The position numbers were made by a program, and so were the translations under genes. The notes under the pieces are model-generated. The model searched no databases. It was given only the letters and a program-made list of their open reading frames with translations, and was not told where the DNA came from. Of a stretch of DNA of 64,000 nucleotides, positions 3,001 to 46,953 are shown piece by piece (position 1 is the stretch's first letter; every line of letters starts with the position of its first letter). Origin of the DNA: Nitrospira japonica (GTDB taxonomy: Bacteria > Nitrospirota > Nitrospiria > Nitrospirales > Nitrospiraceae); contig NZ_LT828648.1 in assembly GCF_900169565.1 (NCBI RefSeq), forward strand, positions 3,756,501 through 3,820,500, in the 5' to 3' direction.

Positions 3001-5922
3001 GCGCGGCGCCACGTACCGCCGGCTCGAGGCCAGATATTCTTCGGGATCCGGCAGGAGCGTCCGATCGACCTTTCCGTTCTGATTCAACGGCAGCGCCGGC
3101 AGGCAGACCATCGCCGAGGGAATCATGTAGTCCGGTAACCGTTCCTTTAAGAATTCTCGCCAACCGGATGGTTCGCCGCTGGTATCCCCCGGCACGACGT
3201 AGGCGGCCAGGTACTTCTCGCCCGCCCCGCTCTGGCGCGCCGTCACGACCGCCTGCCGAATGCCTGGATGCTCGGTGAGACAGGCTTCGATTTCTCCCAA
3301 TTCGATGCGGTACCCCCGGAGCTTGATCTGGAAATCCGCGCGGCCGAGAAACTCAACGGCACCGTCCGGCAGAAGACGCGCGACATCCCCCGTCTTATAG
3401 AGCCGCCCTCCCGGCTCCGACGCCAGCGGATGAGGCACGAACCGTTGGGCCGTGAGATCGGGCCGTCCGAGATACCCGCGCGCCAGCCCCGCTCCGCCGA
3501 GGTAGAGATCTCCCGGAACACCGACCGGCACCGGATCGAGCCGCTCGTTTAGGATGTAGGCTTCGGCGTTGTCGATCGGACGGCCGATCGGCACGGTCGC
3601 GGAGAGCCTCGCGTCTTTGTCCTGTTGCTCGACGGAAAAAGTCAGGCAGCCGATCGTCGTCTCCGTCGGTCCATAGTGATTCAGCAGGCGGCAACGACCG
3701 GCCGCCGCCACATGATCGGCGAGCGCGTGCGGCAGGACATCGCCGCCGAGAACGAGCAGACGACGGGGCAGCACCTCGGAACCGTCCGCCGTGGCGAGCA
3801 ATGCCTGGAGATGGGCCGGCACGATCTTGAGGACGTCGATGGGATGCGCCGCGCAATAGTCCCCGAACTTCAGTCCGTCGGTGGCCGTGTCATATCCGAT
3901 CACATGCAGACAGCCGCCGGACGCCAGCGAGGCGAAGATCACGGTGTTGCCCAGGTCGGCTCCGAGCGTCGAGACGGTCGCATAGTTCAGATTCGCCTCC
4001 GCGTTCAACGCGCGGCAGATGAAATCCGTGTAGTTCGAAACTCCAAGGTGCGTCGCGGCCACGCCTTTCGGAACACCGGTCGATCCGGAGGTATAGATCA
4101 CATAGGCCAATTCCATGGGATGAACCGGCCGATCCGGATTACCCGTCGCTTCTTGCGTGAAGGTCCACTCGTGGAAATCCAGACAGTGAGCCCGTATCCC
4201 TGAGGCCGGCAACCGCGGCAGCCATTGCTCCTGCGTCAGCACGACGGCAATGCCGGCCTGCGAGATCTCGAACGTCAGGCGCGCCGGAGAATTCTCCGGA
4301 TCGAGCGGCACATAGGCGGCGCCGGCCTTCAGCACCCCCAATAATCCCGCGACCATTTCGACCGAGCGCTCGACGCACAGGCCCACGAGCGCGCCGCGCC
4401 CGACACCCATCCGGTTCAACCCATGCGCGATCTGATTGGCCTTGGTGTTCAATTCCGCATAAGTCAGACGACAGTCTCCGCAGACGACGGCGACGGCATC
4501 GGGACGCGCCGCCGCTTGACGTTCGAACACACTGTGGAGGGGCCGGGCTGCCGAGAGCGGATGCGCGGCCCCGCGGCCTCCCTGCAGCAATCGACGCCGT
4601 TGGGAGTCGCCCATTACGGGCAGCAGCCCGACGGCGGTCTCCGGCTGCGCCGCCGCACCGGTGAGTACTGCCGTTACGGCCTCTGCGAGAACCGGAAGCG
4701 CCGCCGAGTGAACCGATCCGGGATCAGCCTGCAGGCACAGGCGGATCGATCGGCCTCGCGTCGTACAGATCAGGTTGAGCTTGAGCGGCTCGAACCGGAC
4801 GCCCGCTGGATCAAACGAGAACAACACGTCTCCGATATGCGCGAGCGGTCCTCCGCTATCGAACTCAAAGCCTGCCAGCTCCGACGTTGCGGCTCCGGCG
4901 GCATCGGTTTCGCTCTCCCACGTCAAATATTCCTGCCACTCGCGCGCGCGGTTCCGGTCGGACACGGCCGAGTCGATCAGATTCTGAAACGGGCGATCCG
5001 GATCGATCCGGCATCGCAGCGGCATCCACTTGGCAAAGAGTCCCATCCCGGACTCCAGCTCGTCGTATTTCCTCCCGTCGCCGAGCAGCCCCATGAGAAA
5101 GGTGCGCCGGCCGCCGACCCGCCAGAGCACCACCTGCCAGGCCGCCAAGATGAGCGCCTCAACGGGCGTCTCGCGCCGTTCGGAAAGAGTCAGCAACGAT
5201 GCGGCCGCGTCCGCATCCAGTTCCCAGGCGAGCGTCTTGGCCGGCCAGCCGGAAGTGGTTTCCACGCCTCGCGCCGCATGCTCGAACGGCAGCGTGACGG
5301 TAGCGGGATCGGCCAACAGTTCCCGCCAGAAGCGGCGGCCCTGGGCCGCTTCCTCGTCCGCCAATAATTCGTTCTGCCATTCGGCGAACTGCGCGTACTG
5401 CACCGGCTCCTCGCCCGATTCGGTCACAACATCCCTGCCGTAACCGGCGGCGATCTCGCCGGCCAGATTGTGAAGGGTGCGAATGTCGGCGCATAGGGCC
5501 GGAAGACTGATCAGGAGCCAATGACTCCGGTTCGACAACCGGCACAACGTGCACCGGAAAAGCGGCCCACGGTCCCAATCGATCGGCCGGCGCCGGTGCT
5601 CCTCCAAGATTTCATCACGTTTCACAACCTGCGCCGCGGGACCAACCGCCTCGACGTCGACGACGTCCCAGGCCGGGTTGCCGTCCTCGGCAATCACCTG
5701 CAGCGGCACTTTCACGCCAGGCTCCCGGCAAAACAGCGTCCGGAAGGCCTCGTGTCTCGCCACCGCCGACTCCACCGACCGTTTCAACCGCGTCCCGTCC
5801 AAGGCGCCGTCGATCACCAATGTCCCTTGGGCATAGGCGGCGCCGAACGTCTGTTGAAGCGTCCACAGCCGTTTTTGCTGGGGCGAAAGCCGGAACCCTT
5901 GTACGTCGATGCTTGGTTGCAT
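1..5922 (-). CDS. Nonribosomal peptide synthetase, interface-A(Asp)-PCP-C-A(Dab), C-terminus beyond the window
   Basis: I translated this frame by hand. It is open from an ATG at 5922 to base 1 (1974 codons) without a stop, so the protein continues off the left edge. Domains in order: a condensation-like domain (about 1-440) lacking the HHxxxDG motif; an A domain (about 455-955); a PCP with LGGHSL (about 975-1045); a C domain with HHIVSDAW (about 1060-1510); and an A domain cut before its end. The first A domain gives the pocket residues D-L-T-K-V-G-H-I-G-K, the classical Asp code. The second gives D-I-W-E-L-T-A-D-D for the nine positions visible, the 2,4-diaminobutyrate (Dab) code. It starts 60 bases after the preceding NRPS, which ends in an Asp hydroxylase domain, so the two probably build one hydroxyaspartate module together. 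Later modules and any terminal release domain lie outside the window. Confidence 0.93.
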   Translation of the reverse strand, partial: MQPSIDVQGFRLSPQQKRLWTLQQTFGAAYAQGTLVIDGALDGTRLKRSVESAVARHEAFRTLFCREPGVKVPLQVIAEDGNPAWDVVDVEAVGPAAQVVKRDEILEEHRRRPIDWDRGPLFRCTLCRLSNRSHWLLISLPALCADIRTLHNLAGEIAAGYGRDVVTESGEEPVQYAQFAEWQNELLADEEAAQGRRFWRELLADPATVTLPFEHAARGVETTSGWPAKTLAWELDADAAASLLTLSERRETPVEALILAAWQVVLWRVGGRRTFLMGLLGDGRKYDELESGMGLFAKWMPLRCRIDPDRPFQNLIDSAVSDRNRAREWQEYLTWESETDAAGAATSELAGFEFDSGGPLAHIGDVLFSFDPAGVRFEPLKLNLICTTRGRSIRLCLQADPGSVHSAALPVLAEAVTAVLTGAAAQPETAVGLLPVMGDSQRRRLLQGGRGAAHPLSAARPLHSVFERQAAARPDAVAVVCGDCRLTYAELNTKANQIAHGLNRMGVGRGALVGLCVERSVEMVAGLLGVLKAGAAYVPLDPENSPARLTFEISQAGIAVVLTQEQWLPRLPASGIRAHCLDFHEWTFTQEATGNPDRPVHPMELAYVIYTSGSTGVPKGVAATHLGVSNYTDFICRALNAEANLNYATVSTLGADLGNTVIFASLASGGCLHVIGYDTATDGLKFGDYCAAHPIDVLKIVPAHLQALLATADGSEVLPRRLLVLGGDVLPHALADHVAAAGRCRLLNHYGPTETTIGCLTFSVEQQDKDARLSATVPIGRPIDNAEAYILNERLDPVPVGVPGDLYLGGAGLARGYLGRPDLTAQRFVPHPLASEPGGRLYKTGDVARLLPDGAVEFLGRADFQIKLRGYRIELGEIEACLTEHPGIRQAVVTARQSGAGEKYLAAYVVPGDTSGEPSGWREFLKERLPDYMIPSAMVCLPALPLNQNGKVDRTLLPDPEEYLASSRRYVAPRNPTEEMLAGIWGSILKREQIGIYDNFFDLGGHSLLATQVMARVRSVFHVDLPLRTLFEATTVAQLGEAVESAGLQAGDADVPPVSRAARNGAIPLSFAQQRLWVLTQLDPDGASYNLPIALRLSGILDPAALERSINELVRRHEILRTTVSLSEGQPVQLVAPAQTIPLPVVSLDHLPGSEREAAVLRLATSEAQRPFELAYGPMLRVTLLTLDAEEHVLLLTMHHIVSDAWSSHILVREMTELYVAQLQGRPASLPELPVQYADFAVWQRQWLSGARLQRELNYWKDRLAGGLEPLNLPMDRPRPPVQTSRGASLTIPVSPELSAAVSELGRREGVTLFMTLLAGFYALLYRYTGRADLIVGSPIANRTRSEIEGLIGFFVNTLALRVDLSGSQTVRQLLALVREICLGAYTHQDVPFEKLVEVLQPVRDVSYSPIFQVMFELQNAPTSELAVPGLRIAAVDAEPLTAKFDLTLTLCETEGGLTASMEYNTDLFSADSVERMLRHYELILRDMVARPDAALEELRLLTGEEERRLLTEWNAGPPLRVPGRSFSQLFEDQASATPDATAASCWERRVTYRELSRQADRVAHALRVAGAGPETVVALLGDRGVDFLAMLLGILKVGAVYLPLDAAHPDLRLAHMLSESRAAVLLTTDSHRRRVKPVLDMLAEGTRPAVLTMEWIQGSATADPGPSVPRHAAEAAYAIYTSGSTGSPKGAVVEHRGMLNHLWGKVSTLPLTAGDVVAQTASQCFDISVWQFLAPLLCGAQVCIVSDEIAHDPERLLRHVERAGITILETVPALLQGMLDAADSAAAQRPGLERLRMVLPTGEALPGPLCRRWLARHPLIPLVNAYGPAECADDVTLHRITESPDEQVVSMPVGRPVPNLEVYVLSPSLSPVPVGVAGELCVAGAGVGRGYLRNPAKTAGVFVPHPFSDEPGSRLYRTGDMARYLPDGTVQFLGRIDHQVKVRGFRIEPGEIESQLMEHPDIHETAVVAKADA
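4600..5922 (-). other. Degenerate condensation-like (candidate interface) domain at the N-terminus of the last NRPS
   Basis: The first 440 or so residues have the overall C-domain fold signature: LSPQQKRLW at the start, ARHEAFRTLF, and a YAQFAEWQ segment. At 5461-5520, where a C domain has HHxxxDG, the protein reads SLPALCADIR. Both catalytic histidines are replaced (Pro-Ala), Asp is retained and Gly is Ile. Peptide-bond catalysis is therefore unlikely. Published work on beta-hydroxyaspartate siderophores describes non-catalytic C-like interface domains that help recruit Asp/His beta-hydroxylases. This domain sits directly before an Asp-specific A domain and directly after a protein ending in such a hydroxylase. 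That it is an interface domain is my inference from motif loss and context. Confidence 0.72.
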
Positions 5923-5981: not shown

Positions 5982-8900
5982 TTACGCATTCACCGTCTGG
6001 ACATCCCGCCGATTGATCATCTCTCCCATGGCCACGACGATTTTTCTCGGCCCGACGAAGGGCGCGCGGGCGTGAGCCACCAACATATTGTCGAGCATGA
6101 GCAGATCCATCTCACGCCACGGAAACCGCACGGATGTCCGCTCGTAGAGCTCGCCGATTTCGGCCGCGATATCGTCCTCGATCGGAGTCCCGTCGCCGAA
6201 GTACACGTTGCGCGGAACCCGCTCGATGCCCAGTACCTCGATCAGCGAATTCCGAACCGCCGGCTCCAGGTAGGACACGTGGTGCAGCTGGATCTGGTTG
6301 AAGAATACCCACTCGCCGGTCTTTGGGTGCTTGAGGATCGCGGGACAGACCTGTCTGGTTCGCAGCCCTCCGTCCGGCGTCCAATCCCATTCGACCCCGT
6401 GCTGCCGGCACGTTTCCTCGACCGCCGCCTTGTCCTCGGTGTGAAAGAAATCCTGCCAGCTCACGTCGAACCCCGGCGTGAAATTTCTGACGTACATCAA
6501 CGACCGCTCCTGGAATTTCGCGCGGAGCTCGGGCCGGAGCCTCTCGTACATTTTCCGGCAGTCCACGATCGGGGTCTCTCCGCCTTCCCGCGAGGCCTGC
6601 ACGCAGAAGAACGACTGCTTCAGCGGCCAGCGATGCAAGTGCGAGCTCTCGTTGTGAAAAAGAATGGCCTTGTCTGCCGGATAGGGCGTAGATCCGTAGA
6701 CGTGGCGTCCGGCCTTCTCGCGCGGCAGATCGCCGTACTCGCTGAACAGCGCGGGGCAGAGGGCCTGTGCGACCTGTTCGAAACCCTCGATGCGCTTGAG
6801 CGCGAATCCACGGAACAGGATGGCCCCGTGCGTGAACAATTCCTGTTCGACCTTCGCCCGGTTGTCCTGCGCCCAGGCGGCCAGATCCACGTCCTCGACG
6901 GCCGGCTGCAGCACCAGCGGCAGCGTCTGGTCCGGCGTCAGGTACCGCCGCTCCACCAACGTGCGCTGGGCGAGATTCACCGCCTTCGGTTGAATGCTCT
7001 TGAACCGCTTGAACTTGCCATCCTCGCGCTGCTTGGATTCGATCATGGCGGACTCCTTTTCTGTATGAGAGAGCACCTCGAGCGCGGACAGTCGGGCTTC
7101 CGGCTGGGCAACGATGCTGGCCAGCAGCGTCACGAACCGGTCCGACAGGCCGGCGATCGTCGAAGCCTCGAAGAGATCTGTGCTGTATTTCCACAGACCG
7201 GTCAGTCCCTCCTCGGTGTCTTCCATGAACAACCCGAGATCGAACCGCGCGACCTCGCTTTCGAGTTCGAGCGCACCGACCTCCAAACCGGGCAATTCCA
7301 TGGTGGGCGGCCGCACGTTCTGCAGCACCAGCAGCGCTTGGACGAGCGGATTTCCTCCCAGGTCGCGTTTGAGCTTCAGCGTTTCCACGATCTTTTCGAA
7401 CGGCAGGTCCTGGTGAGCATAGGCCTCCAATGCCGTCCGGCGCACTTGGGTGAGCAACTCCAGGAACGTCGGATTGCCGCCGAGGTCACTGCGAAGGGGC
7501 AGGAGATTGACGAAAAAGCCGACCAGTCCTTCCGTCTCCTGGCGATTTCGGTTGGCGACGTCGGTCCCGATCAGGATGTCTTCCTGGCCGGTCGTGCGGA
7601 ACAACAGGGTATTGAACGCGGCCAGCAGCGTCATGAACAGCGTCACGCCTTGTTTACGGCTCAGCGCGCGCAGCCGCTCGGCCTGCTCCGCCGATACCGT
7701 GAAGACGTGGCGCGCGCCACGGAAGGTCTGCACGGGGGGGCGAGCCCGATCCACCGGCAGTTTCAAGACCGGCGGATTCGCACCCAACCGCTGCTTCCAA
7801 TAGGCCAGGTGCGCGTCCAACACGGGTCCCTGCAACCATTGCCGCTGCCATCGAGCGAAATCCGCATACTGCACCGGCAACGGCGGCAGCTCCGCCGGCG
7901 CCGTGCTTTCCGCCGCTTGCCCGACATGCGCTTGATAGAAGACCGCCACCTCATGAGCCAGCAGCGTCATCGACCAGGCGTCCGCGGCAATATGATGGAG
8001 CGTCACGAGCAGGACGTGCTCCTGCTCCGCCAGATGCAACAGGCGGGCGCGGATCGGGCGATCCTGCTCCAGCCGGAACGGCCGGCGAACTTCCCGGGCG
8101 GCGGCCTCCCGCACCGCCTGATCCCGCCGGTCCTCCGGCAGCCCGCTCAGCTCGTCCAGCGGCAAGGTCAAGCCTTCCGCAGCTCCGATGATTTGCGCCG
8201 GTTTGCCGTCCACCTCGCGGAACGTGGTCCGTAACGTTTCGTGTCTGGCGATCACCTGTTCGAAGCTGTACGACAAGGCGGCCAGATCCAGCATGCCGGA
8301 CAGGCGCAGGGCGAAAGGCAGATTGTAGGACCAGCCGTCCGGCTCCATCTGCGCCAGGAACCACAGCCGTTGCTGGGCGAACGACAGGGCGAGCGGCCCC
8401 CCGCGTTCGGCCGGCGCGAGCAGCGCCGGCGGCGCGCCGGCGCGGCCGGCACGGGCCTGTTCGATGACGGCGCCCAGCGCCTCGACCGTCGGCGCCTCGA
8501 ACAGGCTCCGGAGCGGCAGTTCGATCTGAAACGAGGAACGGATCCGCGAGACGACCTGCGTCGCCAGGAGCGAATGGCCGCCGAGTTCGAAGAAGTTGTC
8601 ATGGATGCCGACATGCTTGGCGCCGAGAATTTCCGCCCAGATACCGGCGAGAATTTCTTCCACTGCCGTGCGCGGGGTTCCCTCGCGGGGCGACTGATCG
8701 CCTTCCTCCGGCGCCGGCAACGCCTTTCGATCGATCTTCCCGTTCGGCGTGAGGGGCAGCGCGTCGAGAAACATCACGACGGAGGGAACCATGTAGTCCG
8801 GCAGCGCCTCGGCCACGAAGGACCGGAGCACCGCGGCGTCGCGGGCGGCGCCTTCGCTCACGACATAGGCAACCAACCGCTTGTCTCCCGGCCGGTCCTC

Positions 8901-11900
8901 CCGCGCCGCCACGACGGCTTCCCGTACGAGGGGATGCTGCGCCACGCGCGCTTCGATCTCGCCCAGTTCGATGCGATAGCCGCGGATCTTGACCTGATGG
9001 TCCCGCCGCCCCAGGAATTCGAGCGTCCCGTCGCGGCGAAACCGCACCAGGTCGCCGCTGCGATAGAGACGCCGGCCCGCGTCGGACGCGAACGGATCCG
9101 GCACAAAGGCGGCCGCGGTCCGCGCGGGATCGTTGAGATAGCCCCGGCCGACTCCCATCCCGCCGATGCAGAGTTCACCCGCCACCCCGATGGGCAGCAG
9201 TTCCAAATCGGGTCCCAGCACGTACAAACGAAGATTGGGGATCGGCCGGCCGATCGGAATGTATCCGCTCTCCGATTCATCGGGGACGACCATGGTATGC
9301 AGCGCCACGTCGTCGGCGCATTCCGCCGGACCGTAGGCGTTGACGAGCGGCACGGACGGATACCGCGCGAACCACTTCCGGCATAATTCGGGCGACAGCG
9401 CCTCCCCTGTCGGCAGCATCCAGCGCAGAGGAAGGTCCATGGATTCCTCTTCGAGAAGACCGCTCATCAGCGAGGGCACGATTTCCAAGACAGTGACGCC
9501 CTTGGCGCGCATCTCACGCAGCAATGCCCGCGGGTCCTGCACCACGGTGCTCGGAACGATCTCCACGCGCCCGCCGCACAGGAGCGCCGTGAGGAATTGC
9601 CACACGGAAATGTCGAAACATTGCGAAGCGGTTTGAGCCACGACGTCGCGGCCGGTCAACCGCAAGGCCGGAATCTTGCTGAGCAGATGATTGACCATCG
9701 CTCGCTGCTCCACCATTGCGCCCTTCGGCACGCCGGTCGAGCCGGACGTATAGATGACGTACGCCAGATTGGCCGGCGCCGCGTTCACGACCGGATTGGA
9801 ATCCGATGACCGTTCTTTCTCCAACTGCTCCAACGTGGAAACGGGCGTGCTCAGCCCGGCGAGGGACGTCGCCCGGCCGATCCGATCGACATAGCGCTCG
9901 GTCGTGACGATCATCGCCGCCCGGCTGTCCTGCAACACTTGGGCAAGACGCCGTTCCGGATGTCCGGGATCGAGCGGCAGATAGGCCGCCCCGGCCTTGA
10001 AAATACCCACGATCATTACCAGCAGGTCCAACCCCCGCTCGTTCAAGATGCCCACCAGGCGGTCGGGGCCGGCACCGCGCGCGAGCAGCGCGTGGGCCAC
10101 GGCATTCGCCCGGCGGTTCAACTCGGCATAGGTCAGGCTCACTCCCTGACAAGCGGCAGCGATGGCATCGGGCGTCTTGACGGCTTGCGCCTCGAACAAC
10201 CGGCTGAACCGGTCATCCTCAAGTTCGACCTCCTTCGTGACGCTCCATTCCTCGGTCAGCCGCCGGCGCTCCTCGTCCGCGATCAACGAGAGGTCGACCA
10301 ATCGTGCATCCGGATTCGCGACCATGCATTCGAGGAGATGCTTGAGATGGTCCAGCATCCGCTGCACGACTTCGCGCTCGAACCAGCGGGGCTGGAACGA
10401 GAGCCGGACGCCCAATTCACGGCCGGGATAACCGACGACGGTCATGGGATAGTTCGTATGGACCCGGTCGTGGTCATACGCAATATCGACCGTGCCCCAT
10501 TGCTCGCCGAGGCGCGGGTCTTTCGGCGCGTTCTCGAACACCAGCAAACTATGGAATAGCGACTGTCCAGCCGCCATTCCTCCCCAGCGCTGAATCTCGA
10601 TCAGCGGCGGATACTCGAACTGTCTGATCCGATAGTTTTGCGCGAGCAGTTCTTTCAGCCACTCGACAAGAGACATCTCAGAAGAAACTCGAACTTTAAG
10701 CGGTAAACTATTGATAAATAACCCGACAATAGACTCGACACCGTCCAGATCCGTGGGCCGACCCGCGACCGTCACTCCGAACACCACGTCACGCTGTCCG
10801 TTATAGCGGGCCAACAACAGCGCCCATGCCCCCTGGACGATCGTGTTCGGCGTCAGTTGGTGCCGCGAAGCCAGCGCTTGCAGCTGTTCGGTCGCCCGGG
10901 TCGACAGCTCCATATACACGTCGTCGACCGAATCTTCTCCGCCCGACGCGCCGGCCCGCTCGATACCCAGGGCCGTGGGACCAGAGCAATCTTTGAGTTC
11001 CGTCCTCCAAAACGTTTCCGCAGCGGCGAGGTCCTGCTTCTTCAACCACGCGATGTATTCCCGATAGGGTGTGACGGGCGGCAATTCCACGTCCCTCCCC
11101 TGAAGAAAGGCCTGGTAGTAGGCGCGGAAATCCATCATCAACAGCGAGAAACACCAGTCATCGGTGAGAATATGATGGAAGCTTCTGACGACCGCGTAAT
11201 AGTCATCCGCCAGCCGGACCAGATGAATCCGCATGAGCGGCGGCTTGGCCAGGTCGAGCCCTCTCGACAACTCGGCCTGCAGCAATTCCTGCAGCCGTTC
11301 GCCATGCTCCGACTCCGGATGCGTACGCCAATCCAATTCTTCGATGACCGAGGACAGATCGACCGTGGTATGCACGGCTTGGAGCGGCTGCGGAAGGTCC
11401 TTCCACATGAAGGACGTGCGGAGGATTTGATACCGCTGAATCACCCGGTGCCATGCGCGCACGAACAGGTCGCGATCCAAGTGACCGCGCCACATGTACC
11501 GCTGTTGCATCAAATAGATTCCCGATCCCGGATTCATCAGCGTGTGAAACAGCATCCCCTCCTGCATCGGCGAGAGCGGATAGAGATCTTCGATCTGCTC
11601 CCAGTCGTCGCGGAGCGGCGCCAGGTCCTCACGGCTGACGGCGACGAGCGGAAACATCCCCGGCCCCCCGGCGTCGGCCGCCTTGACGGGAGCCGTCTCA
11701 GCGGCGGGCGACGAAACATTCTCGGGTTTGGCCGCGCCTTCGTTCGGAGCCGTCGCAGGCCCTGCCGCGACGGCCGCGGCTTCGGCGACGGTTTGACATT
11801 CGAACAGCTGCTTCGGAGTCAACTTGACGCCCTTCTGATTGGCTCTGGCGATCACTTGGAGACTGCGGATCGAATCTCCCCCCAGCGAGAAAAAGTTGTC

Positions 11901-14900
11901 GTGAATCCCGATGCGCTCCCGGCGCAGCACGTCCGCCCAGATACCGGCGAGAATCGACTCGATCTCGTTGCGGGGGGCCACGTAGCCCACCGAACCGGTC
12001 GCCGCGTCCTGCGAGTCCGGCAGCGCGGCCCGATCCACCTTTCCGTTACGGGTCAAGGGCCAGGATTCCATCACGACGATCGCGCCGGGCACCATATATT
12101 CCGGCAGTGTCTTGGCCAATCGATTGCGCAGCTCGGCGACGTCGATTGGTGCGTTCGCCGTGACGTAGGCCACCAGCTGTTGCGATCCGCCTTCCCCCTC
12201 GCGCACGAGGACGACGGCCTCGGACACGCCTCCCTCGCTTCGCAGTCTGTTTTCGATTTCTCCCAACTCGATGCGGAACCCTCTGAGCTTCACCTGATAA
12301 TCCACGCGACCGATATATTCGATCGTTCCGTCCTCGCGCTCGCGCACGCGATCGCCGGTTCTGTAGAGCCGTCCTCCCGGCTGTTCTCCGAACGGATCGG
12401 GAATGAATCGGTCCGCGGTCAGATCGGGACGACGGAGATACCCGCGCGACAGTCCGGCTCCTCCGACGTACAGTTCCCCCGGCACTCCGAACGGCACGAC
12501 GTTCATGTCATGATCGAGGACATAAGAGCAGGCGCCGGCAAGCGGACGCCCGATCGGCACCACCGTTTCGTCGTCGGACCAGCCGTCCAGTCGATTGGCG
12601 ATCACGCCGACCGTCGTCTCGGTCGGTCCGTAGTGATTGACGACGGCGCAATCGGGCGCCAGCGCTCTGACCTTGTTCACGAGTTCGGGGCGCACGCGTT
12701 CTCCGCCGAGGATGAGGCAATGCCTGGGAAGGACGTGGGCCGGTTCGGCTGCTTCCAGAAGCCCGCCGAGATGGCTCGGAGCGATCTTGAGGACCCCGAC
12801 CCGATGACGATGCATGTACGACGCCATTGCATCGGGGTCGAATCCCCGATCCGCCGACAAGACATGAAGGGTACGCCCGGAACACAGCGCCCCGAAGATG
12901 GAGGTATGGCCCAGGTCCGCCCCCACGGTGGACACCGTTGCCAGGCTTGCATCGGGGGGCAGCACCAGCCGATCCAGGACGGCCCGCACATACGCGACGA
13001 GTTGCCGGTGCTCTACCGACACCCCCTTGGGTTCGCCGGTCGAGCCGGATGTATAAATGACGTAGGCGACGTGCTGCGGGCTCGCCGGCGAGGACTGAGT
13101 CTGCGGCGAGGCGGTCTGCACGGCCGGCCATTCGCGATCCAATGGAATACAGGTCACGGCGATCCCGTGGAGCAGCTCCATCCACGCGGAGTGCGTCAGC
13201 ACGACTTCGGCGCCACTGTCACGCAGCATGAACGCGACCCGCGCCTGCGGCAGCTTGGGGTCGATGGGAACGAATCCCGCTCCCGCCTTGAGGACCGCGA
13301 GCAACCCGACGATCATGTCCAGTGACCGGTCCATGCAGAGTCCGACGAGACTCTCCGGCCCGACATCCATCGTACGCAGAACGGACGCCAGCGATTCGGC
13401 GCGCGCGTCGAGATCGCGATAGGTCAACGACTCCCCTTCGTACACCACGGCGGCCCTATCCGGCTCTTTTCGCGCATGCTCGGCAACCATCTCGTGGATA
13501 CAGACGGCAGACGCGGCCGGTCCGGACGCGGTCCGCGGCGTCGACGGCTTCCGCCGCTCCGCCTGGGTGCCGGCCGAGAGCTCGAACAGCCGGGCCGTCG
13601 GTGCCGCCAGCATGCGGTCCAGCGACGCCGTGAGATCGGTCAATAAACGGCGGACGACCGCGTGCGTAAACCGGCGGCGCGCATAGGACGCAATGAGCCG
13701 CAACTCCTCTCCCGGCTCCACCATGAGCGAGAGCGGATAATTGTTCCGGCCGGTCGTGAGGAGATGTCCCGATTCCGTTCCGTCGTTTCGACCGCTCTTG
13801 AGCGCACTGATCGTCACGCCGGTGGCCGGCCCTTCGGACTCTTGCTCCGGATAACTCTCGAACACGACCAGCGTCTCGAACAGCGGACGCCCTGCCGCGA
13901 TGTCGCTCCAACGCTGGATCCTGGCCAGCGGCGTCCATTCGTACTGGCGGATCGTGCTGTTGTGCACCTGCAGCGCGCTCAGCCACTCCGCGATCTTTTG
14001 ATCTCCGGATACCGCGACTCTCACCGGTATGGTGTTGATGAAGAGACCGACCATGTTCTCGGAGCCGGTGAGTTCGACGGGACGTCCGGACACCGTGGCC
14101 CCGAACAGCACTTCCCGCTCACCGCTGTACCGGTTGAGCAGCAGCGCCCAGGCCCCTTGAATCAGCGTATTGACCGTCACCCGTTGCTGCTGGGCAAAGG
14201 CTTGCATCGCCTGCCAACGCGACGGATCGACCCGCACTTCCTGCTCCGCGTAGAGAAACCGCTCGTCCGACGCCGCGTCGTCGGGCTCCGGCAGCGCCGG
14301 CGCGGTGGGAACGCGGAATCCGGCGAGTTCGGCGCGCCAGAACGTCTCCGCCGCGCGCTCGTCCTGCCGGTTTCTCCAGGCGATGTAGTCGCGATAGGGC
14401 CGCGACTCGTTCTGCCGCGGCGTGCGGCCCTGCCGCAGCGCTTCATATATCGACAGGACGTCCTGCAGCAGCAGCGACATGCTCCAGCCGTCCAACAGAA
14501 TGTGGTGATGGCTGTTGAACAGATACCAGCGGCGTTCCGAAACCGCGATCAGGTGCAGCCGCATCAACGGCGGCACCATGAAATCCATGCCGTTCTGCCG
14601 GTCCTTGGCGAGGAGCGCTTCGACGGCCTTCTCGCGATCGGCCTCGGACAGGCCTCGGAAGTCATGCCGATGAATCGGCATCTCCACGTCACGACGCACG
14701 ACCTGCAACGGCCGCTCGACACCCTCCCACACGAAGGCGGTGCGAAGGATCGCATGCCGCCGAACCGCCTCTTGCCATGCCTTGACGAAGAGGTCTTCCT
14801 GCAGATCGCCCTGCAGCTGGTATCCATACTGATACCAATAGGGATCGGCTTCCCCTTCGGCGACACGGTGAAACAGCAGTCCCTCCTGGAGCGGGGACAG

Positions 14901-14925
14901 GTAGTACATCGCTTCGATCTGTTTC

Positions 14926-14945
<20 letters not shown>
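5982..14945 (-). CDS. Nonribosomal peptide synthetase, C-A(Asp)-PCP-C-A(Dab)-PCP-C with C-terminal Asp beta-hydroxylase
   Basis: 2987 residues. Domains: C1 (about 10-450, HHHILLDGW), A1 (485-985), PCP1 (LGGDSI, 1010-1080), C2 (1115-1550, HHILTDDW), A2 (1580-2080), PCP2 (LGGHSL, 2100-2170), C3 (2190-2620, HHIAADAW), and a TauD/SyrP-like hydroxylase (2634-2987). The A1 pocket reads D-L-T-K-I-G-H-V-G-K (Asp). A2 reads D-I-W-E-L-T-A-D-D-K (Dab). C1 follows the upstream synthetase's terminal epimerase, so it should be a D-donor condensation domain. C3 has no A domain behind it in this protein; the A domain it needs is probably the Asp domain of the next gene. The ATG at 14945 has GGGGAG just upstream and overlaps the previous gene by 20 bases, which suggests translational coupling. 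A second in-frame ATG at 14936 is possible. Confidence 0.95.
5985..7046 (-). other. Fused SyrP/TauD-family Fe(II)/2-oxoglutarate hydroxylase domain of the NRPS
   Basis: The last 354 residues of the 2987-residue NRPS form a complete non-heme iron dioxygenase-like domain. The metal-binding HxE motif is in FHNESS (residue about 2767). The distal His lies in LVAHAR (about 2957), with the conserved GPRKIVVAM after it. A TRQVCPA segment and SREGGETPI are also typical. It aligns by eye along its length with the stand-alone hydroxylase at 22851-23876, sharing ILFRGF, EGG.TPI.D, MYVRN, LRTRQVC and LMLDNML. Members of this family (SyrP and the siderophore Asp beta-hydroxylases) act on Asp tethered to a PCP. 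The substrate is probably Asp on the next protein's first PCP, with PCP1 of its own chain as the alternative. Confidence 0.88.
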
Positions 14946-22839
<7,894 letters not shown>

Positions 22840-22850
22840 CTGTCCACCTG

Positions 22851-23876
22851 TTAGTGCTTGCTCGATTCAGCCATGGCCACGAGGATCTTGCGCGGGCCTT
22901 TGAACGGCGTGCGCCCATGCGCCGCCAGCATGTTGTCCAACATCAGCACGTCGCCCCGTTGCCACGGAAATTGGACGGCGTGACACCGGTAGACGTCCCT
23001 GATTTCATCCAGCACCGCCGTGTCGATCGGCGTGCCATCCCCGTAACAGGCCTGCCGCGGAAGATCGGCTTCGCTGACGACGGAGAGCAACGCCTCGCGT
23101 ACCGCCGATTCCAGGTTGGACACGTGAAACAGATGCGCCTGGTTGAACCAGACCGTCTCACCGGTGCGCGGGTGCACGGCGACGGCCTGGCAGACCTGGC
23201 GCGTGCGCAGTTCCCCGTCCGGCTTCCACTCATAGGCAATCTCAGCCGCGCGGCAGAACCGCTCGACGACGCCGCGGTCCATGGTGTTGAAGACCTTGGT
23301 CCAGGGCACGTCCAGTCCGTTGCCGTAGTTGCGGACGTACATCACGCCCTTTTCGACGAACCGGTCCCTGATCCGGGCCGGAATGTGCCGATACATCTCG
23401 CGGCTGTCCGCGATCGGCGTGTAACCGCCCTCCGGAGACGCCTGCGCGCAGTAAAACCAGATCTTCATCGGCCATTCGGTGGTATAGGCCTGCTCGTTGT
23501 GCAGCGGGATGTGCTGGTGCGGAGGATATTCCGTCGACGTGTAGATCTGATTGTGGACTTGCGACCGCGGCGTCGACCCGAATTCGTACGACGCGAGGTC
23601 CGGGGAAATCCGCTTGACCATGGCCTCGAAATCCGCCGCCGAATCGACGGGAAATCCTCGAAACAGGATGCCGCCGACAGTGGAGAGATGGGCCCCGATT
23701 ACACGGTCGATGTCATCCTGATAGCCGGCCAGCGGCAACCGTTCGGTCGGCGTCACCACGACCGGAAGCGGAGTGTCGGCATCCAGCCGTCCTACCGCGC
23801 AGGCTCGCAATCCCGTGGCCGCACCGGACGCGTCGTCCATCGTCACCGGACCCGCGTCGTTATGATTCACGTGCAT
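22851..23876 (-). CDS. Stand-alone SyrP-like aspartate beta-hydroxylase (TauD/TfdA family)
   Basis: 341 residues. The ATG at 23876 is preceded by GGAGGT at good spacing. It is a non-heme Fe(II)/2-oxoglutarate dioxygenase: the HxE metal motif is in LHNEQA (about residue 127), the distal His in LAAHGR (about 319), followed by GPRKILVAM. ILFRGF and LMLDNML are further family landmarks. Relatives hydroxylate Asp bound to an NRPS carrier protein, giving beta-hydroxyaspartate, a bidentate Fe(III) ligand in many siderophores. It lies between the type II thioesterase gene (42 bases upstream) and the next NRPS (11 bases downstream). The cluster has two Asp-activating A domains and two such hydroxylases. 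This one probably serves the first Asp module of the 5982-14945 protein, which has no adjacent interface domain. The pairing is inference; stereochemistry cannot be read from the sequence. Confidence 0.9.
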   Translation of the reverse strand: MHVNHNDAGPVTMDDASGAATGLRACAVGRLDADTPLPVVVTPTERLPLAGYQDDIDRVIGAHLSTVGGILFRGFPVDSAADFEAMVKRISPDLASYEFGSTPRSQVHNQIYTSTEYPPHQHIPLHNEQAYTTEWPMKIWFYCAQASPEGGYTPIADSREMYRHIPARIRDRFVEKGVMYVRNYGNGLDVPWTKVFNTMDRGVVERFCRAAEIAYEWKPDGELRTRQVCQAVAVHPRTGETVWFNQAHLFHVSNLESAVREALLSVVSEADLPRQACYGDGTPIDTAVLDEIRDVYRCHAVQFPWQRGDVLMLDNMLAAHGRTPFKGPRKILVAMAESSKH

Positions 23877-23918: not shown

Positions 23919-24683
23919 TCATCGCGCCGTCCCCCGGCATCGCGACACCAAAGAGGACAGGGCTTCCAGCATCGGCTCCTGCGCGGTCCGAAGAAAAAAG
24001 TGATCGCCTTGGAACAGCCACAGCTGGAATCGCTCACGCGAGTGCCGCTTCCAGCCTTCCAGTTTGGCGCCGCTCACGTGGCCGTCGGCCATCCCGCCGA
24101 ACGCCGTGATCGGGCAACCCAGCGGCGGCTCGTCGCGGTGCAGGTAGCGGTCGCGGAGCGAAAAGTCCGCGCGCAGCGTGGGTAGGACCAACTGCATCAG
24201 TTCCGGATGATGGAGCACTTCCGGCGGCGTGCCGTTGAACTGCTTCAACCGGTCGACGAACTCGGATTCGGACAGCTCGCTCAGACGATCCGAATCCGGA
24301 TGGTGCGGCGCGGGGCAGCCGGACACGAACAAGTGAACGGGCTCGAGGCCCCTGGCGCGCCGGAGTTCGCGCGCCAACTCGAAACACACCAATGCGCCGA
24401 TGCTGTGGCCGAAAAACGCGAACGGTCGATCGAGGTACGGCTCAAGCGCGTCACTCAATCGCGGCACGAGTTCGCGCAGGTCGGCGACCGGCGGCTCCGT
24501 GATTCGGGATTCCCGACCCGGGAGCTGTACGGCGCAGATCTCGACGTCGGACGGCAGCCCGTCCGGCCAGCTTCGGAATGCCGACGCCCCGGCCCCCGCG
24601 TACGGGAAGCAGATCAGACGCATCCCGTCGGGCGACGGCCGATGAGTCACGACCCAGGGCGACGGCCGCGCCGCGGTCAGCAT
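23919..24683 (-). CDS. Type II (external) thioesterase
   Basis: 254 residues of the alpha/beta-hydrolase thioesterase family found beside NRPS/PKS genes. The nucleophile elbow is GHSIGA (Ser about residue 93). The FPYAGA oxyanion region sits near the N-terminus, the acidic residue in GGMADG, and the catalytic His in GDHFF near the C-terminus. Such enzymes clear misprimed or stalled acyl groups from carrier domains. It is a separate protein, not the release domain of the assembly line. The frame is open further upstream, but that part overlaps the MbtH gene in another frame. I chose the ATG at 24683 because it overlaps the MbtH stop by 7 bases and gives the normal family length of about 250 residues. 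Confidence 0.93.
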
Positions 24684-24919
24684 GACGTCGCCGTCTTCTC
24701 GGACTTGGCCTGCTGGTCCATCCATTGCCGCAGGCTCAGCGGCCGCATGTCGGTCCATACCTCCGTGATATACGCCAGGCATTCAGCCTTCAGGCCCGTC
24801 TTGCCGGCGTCTTTCCAACCCAGCGGATTGTCCCGATAGGCGGGCCAGATCGAATACTGTTCCTCATGGTTCACCACGACTTTGTATACGGTCGTGTCTT
24901 CCCGTTCCTCGTTCTGCAT
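24677..24919 (-). CDS. mbtH: MbtH-like protein
   Basis: 80 residues. It has the family hallmarks: [10 protein letters not shown], then NPLGW and the GWxxxG spacing, and VWTDMRP followed by a terminal helix. These small proteins bind the N-terminal subdomain of A domains and are needed for folding or activity of many of them. The ATG at 24919 follows a perfect AAGGAGG at 4 bases. It sits between the acylase and thioesterase genes and overlaps the latter by 7 bases. It could serve any of the A domains encoded here; the Ser, Asp and Dab domains are all plausible clients. Confidence 0.97.
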
Positions 24920-24932
24920 GGCGCCTCCTTGG

Positions 24933-27356
24933 TTAGTATGGTTGACGATCGAGGACGGCCTGTCCGGACATGGCGGCCGTCGTATGGGAAACCGGGATCA
25001 GTGTCATGGTATGGACCGCCGGTCCCGCCAACAACGGAAGCGGCAGCCCGTCGCGCCAGTAGGGATGTTGGTCCCGGTAATGCGGTGAAAGCGGATGTCC
25101 CGACTGGCCGCCCGGCATGTGCAGAATCCCCGCGTCCGAATGTCCCGGTGAGACGACGAGACGCTGGCTGGCCGCAAGCCCGGCGTTCATGACCCTGACA
25201 CATTGGCCGCAGCCCGGCGACGGTCCCTCAGGCATATTGAGCACGGGTCCCAACCCGGGCAGCGCGTCCGCGAGGGGATGCGTGATGCGCACCCGGTTCA
25301 CCTGCCCCCAGGTCAACTCACTCAAGGCTACGGAGGGAAATTCGGCTTCCAGTTCGCGCGAACTCTCTTCCAGGACGTGCACGAGAAACTCCGTCCAGCC
25401 GGGAAAATGTTCGGGGTCGGGATTGAGTTCCGGGGGCTGCGCCGTCAACAGACTGCGCAGCGGCGTGTCGAGATCGCCGCTCAGCACGAACCGTGGCTCG
25501 CGCTCGAGACAGGACGACAGGTACGGAGTGAACACGGCACGGGTCAGCACGTCGCGAAACCGCACGACTAGTCCGAACCCGAGACTGTCGGCCTCTGCCT
25601 TGCCGTTCCAGGCGTCCAGGACTTCCCGCGCCTGAGCCAGCAGCGGATTGGCCGCCACGATCGAATCGGTCAACAGGCCGCGCGCGGTCTTCCGGTAGAA
25701 CTCGTAGAATTGGCTTGTCGAATCCAGTTGCAGCTCCAGAAGGTCCCGCTCCCGGATTCCCGTCATGGCTTCGAGCCGCTGGGAGATGCGGAACGCGCGG
25801 TAGCCATTGGCGAAGGAATGGCCGATCACATAGGGATAGTCCCGACCCAGCATGCGATGGTTCGCGCTGACGACGAAGCCGGACGGAGGATCCGTCATCC
25901 GGGGCACCGCCTCCGGTGTGACATACCCGGTCCAGCCTGCCCGTCCGTCGGCCCAGGAGACGCTGGACGATCCGTCGAATCCGCGCCGCACGGGAATCTT
26001 GCCCGTGTAGGTCCAGGCGATGTGCCCCTCGCGATCGGCAAGCAGGACGTTATTCGCCGGACCGCCGGAATGGGTCATCACCGCGATCGCTTCGTCGACC
26101 GATCGCACGCGATCCATCTCGATCTGTCCGAGGTCCACGGCCTGCGGATCGAGCGCCGTCCAGCGGACGGCGACCGGCCTGCCGAGCAGCGGCTGCTCCG
26201 ATAGGGGTCCCCAGATCGTATCCGCAAACTCGACGGCCACGTCCTCACCGCCCTTGACCTTGATCACCTCGCGCCGGATTTCGAACGACCGCCATCCCTC
26301 GGGAGTCCTGTACAGACTCGGATCGCCGGGATGCACCTCCACCGGAACCAGATCGAGAAAATCCCCTTCCACGTTCGTGACGCCCCAGGCCACGGCGCCG
26401 TTGGTCCCCGCGACGACGACCGGAATGCCGGGCACGGCCACGCCTGCAAGTTCGACCGATCCGTACCGCAACTGCGCGCGGTGCCAGATGTTCGGCACGG
26501 TGACGTCCAAATGCATGTCGTTCGCCAGCAATGCTCGCCCGTCCGCCGTCTTCATTCCATGAACCACCCAGCCGTTCGAGCCCAGTCCGATGCGGCTTTG
26601 CCGCACGAGCGCCGCCTTGGACAGGGAGGACGGATCGACCGGACGCCGCAGGGCGGCGAGCGATTGCACCGGAATCGCCGGAGCGAGATCCCGCAGGTCC
26701 GCTTTCCCGAGCAGGGCCTCCGTGTAAGGATCGGTCTCCGGCACCAGAAATGCCACGACGTCCGGCGGAAGCGCCTGCGTCATCACGGTTTTGGCGCGCT
26801 CTTCGTCGTCGGTCCCGTTCAACATCTGAAACACCCCCAACACGACCAGCACGCTGTCCTCGACTTCCCATCGATCCGGTCCGTAGCCGAGCAGCAGAAA
26901 TTCGAACGGCGCCGTCCGCATCTCCGCCAGATAGGCGTTGACGCCGTCCGCATAGGCGTCGAGGACCGTCCGCTGTTCGCGCGGCAACCGGGCGGCGATG
27001 GCCTTCGCCGCGCGACCGAAGCCCAAGCGGCGCTGCCGGACGTCGGTCTCCCGAACCGAGTCGCCCAGCACCTCGGCCAGCCGTCCCGCCCCGCTGCGCC
27101 GGAGCGCATCCATTTGAAAAAGACGGTCGCGCGCGTGGACATAGCCCAGGGCACGGACGGCGTCTTCCCGCGAATCCGCAGTGATCGTCGGAATTCCGTA
27201 GGCGTCGGACGCCACGACGACCGGATCATGCAAGCCCGCCAACGGCGCGCGCCCGTCCAGCGGCGGCAACGACGCCCGCACGGCGAGCGCGGCGACGACG
27301 AGACCCGCCGCCGGTACGAGCGCTGCCACGAGCATGAGCCATCCCAACCGTTTCAT
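24933..27356 (-). CDS. Penicillin-acylase family N-terminal-nucleophile hydrolase (PvdQ-like acylase)
   Basis: 807 residues. The N-terminus has a hydrophobic segment (residues about 5-28), so it is exported to or anchored facing the periplasm. The conserved GSNGW motif near residue 262 marks autocatalytic cleavage, with Ser becoming the N-terminal nucleophile of the beta chain. The C-terminal PGGQSGHP and SPHYRDQ segments are also typical of the family. Family members include PvdQ, which removes the fatty acid from acylated pyoverdine precursor, and acylases that trim amphiphilic siderophores. With a fatty-acid-loading FAAL in the same cluster, removal of the acyl tail in the periplasm is the likely job. 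The frame stays open far upstream, but the true start is the ATG at 27356, which overlaps the aminotransferase stop as ATGA. Confidence 0.9.
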
Positions 27357-28759
27357 GTCCTCGCATCGCGCTCCGCCGCGACGACCGCTTCGCCGAAGAT
27401 CGACGCGATGAGATCGATCTCCTCTTCCGTCACGACGAGGGGCGAGAGAAAACGGACCACGCAGCCGTTGCGCCCGCCCAGTTCGAGGATCAGTCCCCGG
27501 CGGAGCGCTTCCGTCTGAATCTTGCGGGCCATCTCCGGCGCAGCCGGGTAGGTCCCCCGCGCGTCCGGACGCGCATCCGTGTCGACGACCTCCACTCCGA
27601 TCATCAGACCGCGTCCGCGGACGTCGCCGAGACTGCGGGACGAGGCTTGGAGCGCGCGCAGATGCGTGAGCAGCCGCTCCCCCATGATCTGCGCGTGCTG
27701 GTCGAGACGATGGGTCCGTACGAACTCGATGGTTGCGGCCCCGGCGGCCATGGCCATCTGGTTGCCTCGAAACGTGCCGGCGTGCGCCCCCGGCTGCCAG
27801 AGATCCAGCTCGGGCCGGTACACGACGACGCTCAGGGGAAGCCCGCCGCCGATGGCCTTGGACATCACCAGGACGTCGGGAGTGATGCCGGCCCGTTCGA
27901 ATGCCAGCAGCGTTCCGGTGCGGCCCAGTCCCGTCTGGATCTCGTCGACGATCAACGGAATCTTGCGCTCTCTCGTGATTCTCCGGATGTCCTGCAGCCA
28001 CGCGTCGGGACAGGGAATCACGCCGCCTTCTCCCTGGACCACTTCCAGGATCATCGCGGCGGGCGACACGACGCCGCTGTTGGGATCGTCCAGGAGGCGT
28101 TCGATATAGGTGCTCGACAGGCGATGTCCGCTTTCCCCGCCGGTGCCGAACGGGCAGCGATACTCATAGGGGTATGGAAGGAATTGCACGTCGGGCATGA
28201 GCCCGCTGACGGCGCTCTTCGGCCCGAGATGGCCGGTCAACGCCAGTCCGCCGTGCGTCATGCCGTGGTAGGCGCCTTGAAACGACAGGATCGTCCGCCG
28301 GCCCGTCACCGTCTTGACGAGTTTGATTGCCGCCTCCACCGCGTCGGCTCCGGACGGGCCGCAGAACTGGATACGGGCGTCCTCCGCGAAGGTCTTGGGC
28401 AGAGCGGCGAACAGCGAATCCACGAATTGGTCCTTCACCGGCGTGGTCAAGTCGAGCGTCTGGAACGGGACACCGTCCTCCAGGAACCGTTGGATGGCCT
28501 CCAGCACGACGGGATGGTTGTGCCCCAGCGCCAGCGCGCCGGCACAGGCGAGACAATCGATATAGGTCCGGCCGTCGGTGTCTTCGACGTAAATTCCCTT
28601 GGCCTTGCGCAGCGCCAGCGGCAAACGCCGGGGATAGCTCCTGGCGTTCGATTCGCGCTCCGTCTGCCGCTCGAGGTAGGGATTCACCCGCTGTTCCGCG
28701 GGCGGAGCCTTCCGGCTCGTCGAAAACGTGTGTCGCATGTCATCCACGTGAACGGTCAT
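27353..28759 (-). CDS. Diaminobutyrate-2-oxoglutarate aminotransferase (PvdH/Dat type)
   Basis: 468 residues, a class III PLP-dependent aminotransferase. Landmarks are FCGPSGADAVEAA, AYHGMTHG, VDEIQTGLGRTG and the PLP lysine in MSKAIGGG (about residue 299), followed by AGTFRGNQ. The pattern fits enzymes that convert aspartate semialdehyde plus glutamate to L-2,4-diaminobutyrate. The NRPSs here contain three A domains with the Dab code, so it supplies their substrate. The start at 28759 is preceded by AAGGAG at ideal distance; an upstream TTG (28777) would place that ribosome-binding site inside the gene. It ends in an ATGA overlap with the acylase gene, indicating translational coupling. An ectoine-type EctB is the alternative, but no ectoine genes are present. 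Confidence 0.93.
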   Translation of the reverse strand: MTVHVDDMRHTFSTSRKAPPAEQRVNPYLERQTERESNARSYPRRLPLALRKAKGIYVEDTDGRTYIDCLACAGALALGHNHPVVLEAIQRFLEDGVPFQTLDLTTPVKDQFVDSLFAALPKTFAEDARIQFCGPSGADAVEAAIKLVKTVTGRRTILSFQGAYHGMTHGGLALTGHLGPKSAVSGLMPDVQFLPYPYEYRCPFGTGGESGHRLSSTYIERLLDDPNSGVVSPAAMILEVVQGEGGVIPCPDAWLQDIRRITRERKIPLIVDEIQTGLGRTGTLLAFERAGITPDVLVMSKAIGGGLPLSVVVYRPELDLWQPGAHAGTFRGNQMAMAAGAATIEFVRTHRLDQHAQIMGERLLTHLRALQASSRSLGDVRGRGLMIGVEVVDTDARPDARGTYPAAPEMARKIQTEALRRGLILELGGRNGCVVRFLSPLVVTEEEIDLIASIFGEAVVAAERDART

Positions 28760-28812
28760 GACTGGCTCCTTCCGCAATGAGACCGGCTGCCGCGGATCCG
28801 TCCGCAGCGTCG

Positions 28813-40478: not shown

Positions 40479-40517
40479 CTGACTCCCTCCGAACGGTAGA
40501 CACACCCCGAGCATAAA

Positions 40518-46917: not shown

Positions 46918-46953
46918 CCCTATCCTTACACAACGATTGTCCCGAGGAAAGCC

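What the first reader, a model, noticed from the sequence alone, without database searches (positions are those of the whole stretch)
5985..23876. Two distinct Asp beta-hydroxylases for two Asp modules in one assembly line
A stand-alone hydroxylase (22851-23876) and a fused one (5985-7046) coexist. Exactly two A domains visible here carry an Asp code. One Asp module has an adjacent interface-like domain, the other has none. Literature on these enzymes separates interface-dependent and thiolation-domain-dependent types with different stereochemical outcomes. The product may therefore hold two hydroxyaspartates of different configuration.
Basis: partly seen in the sequence, partly recalled or inferred. 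Interest (0 to 1): 0.65.

Follow-up and report, generated by a model that had tools for sequence, protein, structure and literature searches.

The report
Two-handed hydroxyaspartate siderophore pathway in Nitrospira
A Nitrospira bacterium carries a gene cluster for a probable iron-scavenging lipopeptide in which two different enzymes each decorate one aspartate, probably with opposite handedness, an arrangement already known from siderophores of other bacteria.

Summary
The window lies in a Nitrospira genome. A stand-alone TauD-type Asp hydroxylase (22851-23876, -) and one fused to the end of an NRPS (5985-6995, -) sit in one FAAL/PKS/NRPS line with exactly two Asp-coded A domains. In a 74-row tree the two fall on opposite sides of a 100/100 branch: the stand-alone one with MobD (L-erythro product), the fused one with CcsFGH (3S, L-threo assigned). 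The modules match: the Asp module in gene 5982-14945 has a catalytic C domain and a GGDSI carrier; that of the next gene starts with a motif-less 'interface' domain and has a GGHSL carrier. Of 85 Asp-coded modules examined, 54 are C+GGDSI and 21 interface+GG(H/N)SL. All 19 family genomes with the fused enzyme also have a stand-alone one. So one L-erythro and one L-threo hydroxyaspartate is a well supported prediction, chemically untested. It is not new in kind: potashchelins, cupriachelin and cyanochelin B are precedents. Extra points: some Nitrospira have, in that place, another hydroxylase clade with an interface-His-like module; this genome and G083 lack two modules that 12 relatives have (deletion or assembly collapse); the third iron ligand is not identified.

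The parts
22851..23876 (-). stand-alone Asp beta-hydroxylase, thiolation-dependent (TbetaH-Asp) type; predicted 3R (L-erythro) product
   Evidence: Pfam TauD; tree with MobD
5985..6995 (-). Asp beta-hydroxylase domain fused to NRPS C-terminus, interface (IbetaH-Asp) type; predicted 3S (L-threo) product
   Evidence: Pfam TauD; fused side of a 100/100 branch
5982..14945 (-). NRPS C-A(Asp)-T(GGDSI)-C-A(DIWELTADDK)-T(GGHSL)-C-hydroxylase
12006..13511 (-). A domain, code DLTKIGHVGK (Asp)
11736..11969 (-). T domain with GGDSI motif, no E domain after it; proposed site of the stand-alone hydroxylase
7044..8405 (-). C domain directly before the fused hydroxylase (HHIAADA)
1..5922 (-). NRPS I-A(Asp)-T(GGHSL)-C-A(DIWELTADDK)-T-TE; runs on beyond the window (2401 aa in all; the TE is read from the sequence, GWSNG motif)
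4579..5904 (-). interface domain: C superfamily, PALCADI instead of HHxxxDG
   Evidence: 576 bits interface model, 168 bits C model; one clade of 20, SH-aLRT 98
3043..4542 (-). A domain, code DLTKVGHIGK (Asp)
2773..2997 (-). T domain with GGHSL motif; proposed site of the fused hydroxylase
14926..22839 (-). NRPS C-A(DIWELTADDK)-T(GGDSI)-C-A(Ser)-T(GGDSI)-E; looks like a fusion of two genes of relatives
23919..24782 (-). type II thioesterase
24933..27353 (-). penicillin amidase family acylase, distantly PvdQ-like (34 bits, cut-off 950); start near the end of the dat gene is approximate, the open frame runs to 28001
27353..28777 (-). diaminobutyrate aminotransferase (dat)
   Evidence: TIGR00709 565 bits, over cut-off
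28813..30510 (-). cyclic peptide export type ABC transporter
   Evidence: TIGR01194 over cut-off
30524..35122 (-). PKS module KS-AT-KR-ACP
35112..40514 (-). loading NRPS: fatty-acyl-AMP ligase (by likeness)-ACP-C-A(DVENVGSVTK)-T
43229..45721 (-). TonB-dependent siderophore receptor
   Evidence: TIGR01783 over cut-off
45919..47508 (-). FecR-type regulator and ECF sigma factor

Best explanation
This is a PKS/NRPS lipopeptide siderophore line of Nitrospira with two site-specific Asp beta-hydroxylases. The stand-alone Fe(II)/2-oxoglutarate enzyme is recruited in trans by the GGDSI carrier of the first Asp module and hydroxylates Asp-S-T at C3 with R outcome (L-erythro; no E domain follows). The enzyme fused to the end of the same NRPS acts on the next protein's carrier, where the interface domain at its N-terminus places hydroxylase and Asp-S-T together; outcome 3S (L-threo). 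Shown here: the genes, domain order, subtypes, module pairing and its conservation. Inferred: activity, timing on the carrier, stereochemistry, siderophore function.
For: Opposite sides of a 100/100 branch (again in a 47-row set). Calibrators: MobD, L-erythro (PMC10391617); CcsK 3R and CcsFGH 3S (PMC12628792). Fe-ligand and 2OG residues (HxE...H...R, recalled motif) are present in both. 85 Asp-coded modules: 54 C+GGDSI, 21 interface+GG(H/N)SL, 2 interface+GGDSI (both followed by E), 3 C+GGHSL, 5 not readable. Of the 22 fused-side loci 21 have an interface-Asp module in the next reading frame; in the 22nd the locus ends 263 bases after the fused frame. 19 of 19 family genomes with the fused enzyme have a stand-alone match too (175 genomes). 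In G142, G143 and G060 a separate hydroxylase clade (3 rows, 100/100) stands directly before an interface-A(DSALIAEVWK) module, so enzyme and interface module seem to be exchanged together.
Against: No chemistry from any Nitrospira was found. Few chemically assigned calibrators are in the trees; CcsK and CcsFGH are basal on their sides, PMC12971057 names cyanobacterial cyanochelin enzymes as separate classes, and the branch between Nitrospira and proteobacterial fused enzymes is long (0.73). The fused Trichormus protein L111 attaches at the base of the stand-alone side; a branch with all 23 fused rows on one side has 77/84 support, so gene layout and clade are nearly the same thing in this set. 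Two cyanobacterial Asp modules have an interface domain together with GGDSI and a stand-alone enzyme nearby, so the interface domain alone does not fix the type. The loci are not independent (many close Pseudomonas and Bradyrhizobium). The pair is not always one cluster as assembled: in 15 of the 19 genomes the two lie 16-22 kb apart, in G075 0.75 Mb apart, in G160, G063 and G071 on different contigs.
Confidence: 0.82

Rival explanations
1. Only one of the two hydroxylases works, so the product has a single hydroxyaspartate.
For: No product known; no functional data.
Against: Both frames are intact with the expected catalytic residues; both are kept together in 19 of 19 family genomes that have the fused one.
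Confidence: 0.07
2. Both work but give the same C3 configuration, because subtype-to-stereochemistry rules from other phyla do not carry over to Nitrospira.
For: Few calibrators; the cyanobacterial ones are named as separate classes; long branch to proteobacterial fused enzymes.
Against: The calibrators agree with the side of the tree they fall on, and the potashchelin paper reports the same rule; module features agree with enzyme type.
Confidence: 0.08
3. The enzymes work on each other's modules (crossed pairing).
For: None found; the stand-alone gene lies beside the DIWELTADDK/Ser gene, not beside either Asp gene.
Against: On the fused side the next frame holds an interface-Asp module in 21 of 21 loci where it can be read; in loci where only a stand-alone enzyme was in view, 46 of 54 Asp-coded modules are C+GGDSI, 3 C+GGHSL, 1 interface+GGDSI, 4 not readable (views mostly 10 kb each side, so a fused enzyme may be out of view); joint exchange of hydroxylase and interface-His-like module in G142, G143, G060.
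Confidence: 0.03

Closest known systems
Potashchelin cluster, Halomonas sp. MG34 (PMC7100376; passages seen)
   Same: Stand-alone PtcA and fused PtcB domain, L-erythro plus L-threo hydroxyaspartate in one lipopeptide, positions fixed by partial hydrolysis.
   Different: Different peptide; contains cyclic N-hydroxyornithine, for which no convincing gene was found here. Sequences not compared.
Cyanochelin B, Leptolyngbya NIES-3755 (PMC12628792; passages seen; DNA in L103, L106)
   Same: FAAL/PKS/NRPS line; fused CcsFGH followed by an interface-Asp module (3S) and stand-alone CcsK (3R).
   Different: The CcsK module also has an interface domain and an E domain (D-threo product); thiazoline part.
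Cupriachelin, Cupriavidus necator (Reitz et al. 2019, recalled; cited in PMC7100376)
   Same: Both enzyme types, both diastereomers.
   Different: Sequence not compared here; carries hydroxyornithine (recalled).
Azospirillum oryzae, Janthinobacterium lividum and Eleftheria terrae plasmid clusters (L109, L108, L107)
   Same: Stand-alone enzyme, NRPS ending in a fused enzyme, then an interface-Asp module; L109 also has a diaminobutyrate aminotransferase.
   Different: Azospirillum and Janthinobacterium have an annotated Orn/Lys N-hydroxylase gene; products were not looked up.

Membership tests
TbetaH-Asp (thiolation-dependent Asp beta-hydroxylase; definition from Reitz 2019, recalled, and PMC10391617) | stand-alone TauD-type protein in an NRPS siderophore cluster | tested here: met
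TbetaH-Asp (thiolation-dependent Asp beta-hydroxylase; definition from Reitz 2019, recalled, and PMC10391617) | groups with chemically assigned members | tested here: met
   in a 47-row clade (100/99) with MobD; one such calibrator inside that clade
TbetaH-Asp (thiolation-dependent Asp beta-hydroxylase; definition from Reitz 2019, recalled, and PMC10391617) | Asp module without interface domain, GGDSI carrier | tested here: met
TbetaH-Asp (thiolation-dependent Asp beta-hydroxylase; definition from Reitz 2019, recalled, and PMC10391617) | L-erythro (2S,3R) product | not testable with these tools
   needs purified product or enzyme assay
IbetaH-Asp (interface-associated Asp beta-hydroxylase; Reitz 2019, recalled) | fused to the C-terminus of an NRPS | tested here: met
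IbetaH-Asp (interface-associated Asp beta-hydroxylase; Reitz 2019, recalled) | interface domain in the partner Asp module | tested here: met
   gene 1-5922, residues about 7-448
IbetaH-Asp (interface-associated Asp beta-hydroxylase; Reitz 2019, recalled) | groups with chemically assigned members | tested here: inconclusive
   on the fused side with CcsFGH, 100/100, but CcsFGH lies at its base and may belong to a separate cyanobacterial class; no assigned proteobacterial sequence was confirmed in the set
IbetaH-Asp (interface-associated Asp beta-hydroxylase; Reitz 2019, recalled) | L-threo (2S,3S) product | not testable with these tools
   needs chemistry
Interface domain (C superfamily) | C-superfamily domain lacking HHxxxDG, separate clade | tested here: met
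   PALCADI; one clade of 20 rows, SH-aLRT 98, quick tree
Lipopeptide siderophore of cupriachelin/potashchelin type | fatty-acyl loading module, NRPS, siderophore receptor | tested here: met
Lipopeptide siderophore of cupriachelin/potashchelin type | N-hydroxyornithine as third ligand | tested here: not met
   one weak match (21.7 bits, cut-off 21.3) to the Orn/Lys N-monooxygenase family in the genome, about 1.35 Mb from the window; that search also rings in 12 of 14 control genomes

The most novel reading that the evidence does not exclude
The stand-alone hydroxylase (or an unknown trans enzyme) also works on the first DIWELTADDK (probably diaminobutyrate) carrier. That module has the same signature as the hydroxylated Asp module: a GGDSI carrier followed by a C domain of the clade that otherwise follows E domains, with no E domain between. 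This would give an extra beta-hydroxylated or D residue, and possibly help to supply the missing third iron ligand. The signature stands at this site in all 13 Nitrospira loci of that set where it could be read, while outside Nitrospira 11 of 14 E-less GGDSI sites are Asp. Against: Nitrospira relatives also have E-less GGDSI carriers on Ser (9 loci) and Gly (1), which suggests relics of lost E domains.
Probability: 0.1. Interest if true: 0.55.

Novelty: new member of a known kind. Interest (0 to 1): 0.35.

Why it matters
Nitrospira are major nitrite oxidisers of soil, water and wastewater plants (general knowledge). Hydroxyaspartate siderophores are photoreactive (PMC12628792). A predicted mixed L-erythro/L-threo siderophore there extends the known stereochemical rule to another phylum, and the presence in some relatives of another hydroxylase with an interface-His-like module in the place of the fused-enzyme/interface-Asp pair is a natural test of the interface-domain idea.

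Tried and rejected
Considered and rejected: that the interface domain alone predicts the configuration; CcsL-type modules have interface+GGDSI with a stand-alone enzyme. Considered and not settled: whether 'fused' versus 'stand-alone' merely mirrors gene layout; the one odd row, L111, attaches between the two sides, while the free-standing interface-His type enzymes of G142, G143 and G060 show only that an interface partner need not be fused. The text of PMC10999976 on variochelin stereochemistry has threo in one passage and erythro in another in the held copy, with letters lost, so it was not used as calibrator. The introduction of PMC7100376 assigns PtcA/PtcB the other way round from its abstract and results; I followed abstract and results. 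The ARAGORN tRNA-Pro at 13860-13957 lies inside a C domain on the coding strand and is taken as spurious. Full-text searches for two A-domain codes found nothing, so code readings rest on recall, except that DIWELTADDK as diaminobutyrate is backed by the dat gene and by co-occurrence (20 of 21 loci with the code have a dat-like gene, 7 of 76 without; loci related). Papers on a Nitrospira siderophore of this kind: none among the titles and abstract starts listed (20 of 57 papers; 20 of 63; 12 of 12; 3 of 3). PMC12971057 counts 16 NRP-metallophore regions in 15 of 307 Nitrospirota genomes (passage); PMC9765116 reports NRPS and NRPS-PKS clusters in Nitrospira, and the word siderophore is not in its main text (passages). 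No structure prediction was run.
Full report
WHERE IT IS. The window is G000:C1:3756501-3820500 of a 4,084,817-base single-contig genome. The nearest named hits to the stand-alone hydroxylase are two Nitrospira MAGs and a 'Nitrospirae bacterium' MAG (77-81% identity); 'Candidatus Nitrospira defluvii' FP929003.1 has 68%. So the organism is taken as a Nitrospira; the species is not established.

THE LINE. The biosynthesis genes run on the - strand. Order of action, inferred from domain logic: FAAL-ACP-C-A(DVENVGSVTK)-T (35112-40514); KS-AT-KR-ACP (30524-35122); C-A(DIWELTADDK)-T(GGDSI)-C-A(DVWHISLIDK, Ser)-T(GGDSI)-E (14926-22839); C-A(DLTKIGHVGK, Asp)-T(GGDSI)-C-A(DIWELTADDK)-T(GGHSL)-C-hydroxylase (5982-14945); interface-A(DLTKVGHIGK, Asp)-T(GGHSL)-C-A(DIWELTADDK)-T-TE (5922 to beyond the window start). 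Accessory genes: ABC exporter, diaminobutyrate aminotransferase, acylase of the penicillin amidase family, type II thioesterase, TonB siderophore receptor, FecI/FecR-like pair. The expected backbone, by inference, is acyl-X-ketide-Dab-D-Ser-OHAsp-Dab-OHAsp-Dab, from which the acylase may remove the acyl chain.

TWO ENZYMES, TWO SUBTYPES. The two TauD proteins are 44% identical and are the only matches in the genome by the Pfam TauD search. From 116 TauD domains in the loci then held I kept 74 rows, thinning stand-alone rows to about four per genus apart from loci of interest, and built a careful tree. 22 of 23 fused domains incl. this one are on one side of a 100/100 branch; the 51 stand-alone ones are on the other, with the fused Trichormus protein L111 at their base (a branch that puts L111 with the fused rows has 77/84). 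Calibrators by chemistry: MobD of tistrellabactin, L-erythro, in a 47-row clade (100/99) with the stand-alone enzyme (PMC10391617, passages); CcsK (3R) and CcsFGH (3S) of cyanochelin B, each basal on its side (PMC12628792, passages). The potashchelin paper makes the same assignment, fused gives L-threo and stand-alone gives L-erythro (PMC7100376, passages), but its sequences were not in the set. A caution: PMC12971057 (passages) treats the cyanochelin enzymes as two additional classes.

THE MODULES AGREE. In an alignment of 118 C-superfamily domains of at least 330 residues from 21 chosen locus sets, 13 lack the HH pair: one odd row (DNLLVDA, L106), left out, and 12 alike, among them the N-terminal domain of gene 1-5922 (PALCADI). 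A model of these 12 found 25 domains that it fits better than the C model does; 23 of the 25 stand before an Asp-coded A domain, the others before DSALIAEVWK (G060) and an incomplete code (L111). In a quick tree of 123 domains the 20 interface domains included (5 near copies dropped) are one clade, SH-aLRT 98. Of 85 A domains with a code beginning DLTK in the locus sets: C+GGDSI 54, interface+GGHSL or GGNSL 21, interface+GGDSI 2, C+GGHSL 3, not readable 5. The first Asp module of the window is C+GGDSI and the second interface+GGHSL. PMC10391617 also links the stand-alone type to a GGDSI carrier. For the 22 fused-side loci, the next frame downstream holds the interface-Asp module in 21; in L058 the locus ends.

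CONSERVATION. A scan of 175 family genomes (own included) with the fused domain found matches in 25; 19 have the fused enzyme (over 500 bits, in frames of 2868-3042 aa) and all 19 also have a stand-alone match; the other 6 have matches in short frames only. Of the 19, 13 have the two enzymes about 22.3 kb apart, 2 (this genome and G083) about 15.8 kb, G075 0.75 Mb, and 3 on different contigs. Among 61 genomes (own included) searched with the stand-alone enzyme, 8 match, 6 of them strongly. So the trait is patchy. In G142 and G143, and in G060 of another family, a separate hydroxylase in a clade of its own (100/100) stands before an interface-A(DSALIAEVWK)-T(GGHSL) module. That code is recalled as His-like, which would fit the known IbetaH-His type. 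G060 has this in addition to both Asp enzymes.

A SHORTENED LINE. N. defluvii, G003, G029, G057, G121, G092, G119, G118, G087, G064 (with one gene split in two frames), G143 and G142 have two NRPS genes where this genome has one. G083, of another genus, has the same short form as this genome. The window's gene 14926-22839 follows relatives' gene 1 up to the second A domain and gene 2 through T and E. In N. defluvii, G003 and G057 and in G087 and G064 the Ser A-T segments of the two genes are 99.9-100% identical over about 1.7 kb; in G029 and in G121, G092, G119, G118 and G143 no such repeat was found; G142 was not tested. Recombination across such a repeat would delete two modules; collapse of the repeat during assembly would look the same. 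I cannot tell which.

MOVEMENT. RpoB is 97% identical to G003 (same genus) and 93% to G029 (another genus), but the stand-alone and fused hydroxylases are 67% and 65% identical to G003 and 80% and 87% to G029. This points to transfer of the cluster between Nitrospira lineages; one marker gene only was compared.

WHAT IS OPEN. No convincing N-hydroxylase for a hydroxamate was found; catechol genes were not searched. So only two bidentate ligands are accounted for. The first DIWELTADDK module has a GGDSI carrier followed by a C domain of the clade that otherwise follows E domains or hydroxylated Asp, yet no E domain. These are the points where the cluster could still hold something new.

VERDICT.

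Noticed in passing
window 14926-22839; L169 (G083): The gene looks like a fusion of two NRPS genes that are separate in 12 relatives read (two modules missing); G083 shows the same short form. True deletion or assembly collapse of a 1.7 kb repeat.
   Followed up: partly
L112-L113 (N. defluvii), L115-L117 (G003), L121-L122 (G057), L159 (G087), L160 (G064): Ser A-T segments of two neighbouring NRPS genes are 99.9-100% identical over about 1.7 kb within each genome, as if homogenised by gene conversion.
   Followed up: partly
L162 (G143), L164 (G142), L126 (G060): A third hydroxylase clade stands directly before an interface-A(DSALIAEVWK)-T module, probably His; hydroxylase and interface module seem exchanged together.
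   Followed up: partly
window 19600-19824 and 18160-19539: GGDSI carrier plus a C domain of the after-E clade, without an E domain, at a DIWELTADDK module; same in all 13 Nitrospira loci of that set where it could be read.
   Followed up: partly
window 27353-28777: A diaminobutyrate aminotransferase gene lies inside the cluster, overlapped by a longer acylase reading frame.
   Followed up: yes
window 42074-63998: Further ORFs around and beyond the receptor; of those checked, FecR-like (54788-55876, 60778-61824) and PepSY_TM (42074-43213, 56733-58055), which suggests repeated iron-uptake units.
   Followed up: no
G000 versus G003 and G029: Cluster identity conflicts with RpoB identity, pointing to transfer of the cluster between Nitrospira genera.
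   Followed up: partly
G075 (L158, L024): The two hydroxylases lie 0.75 Mb apart on one contig, unlike in the other single-contig cases; real split or misassembly not examined.
   Followed up: no
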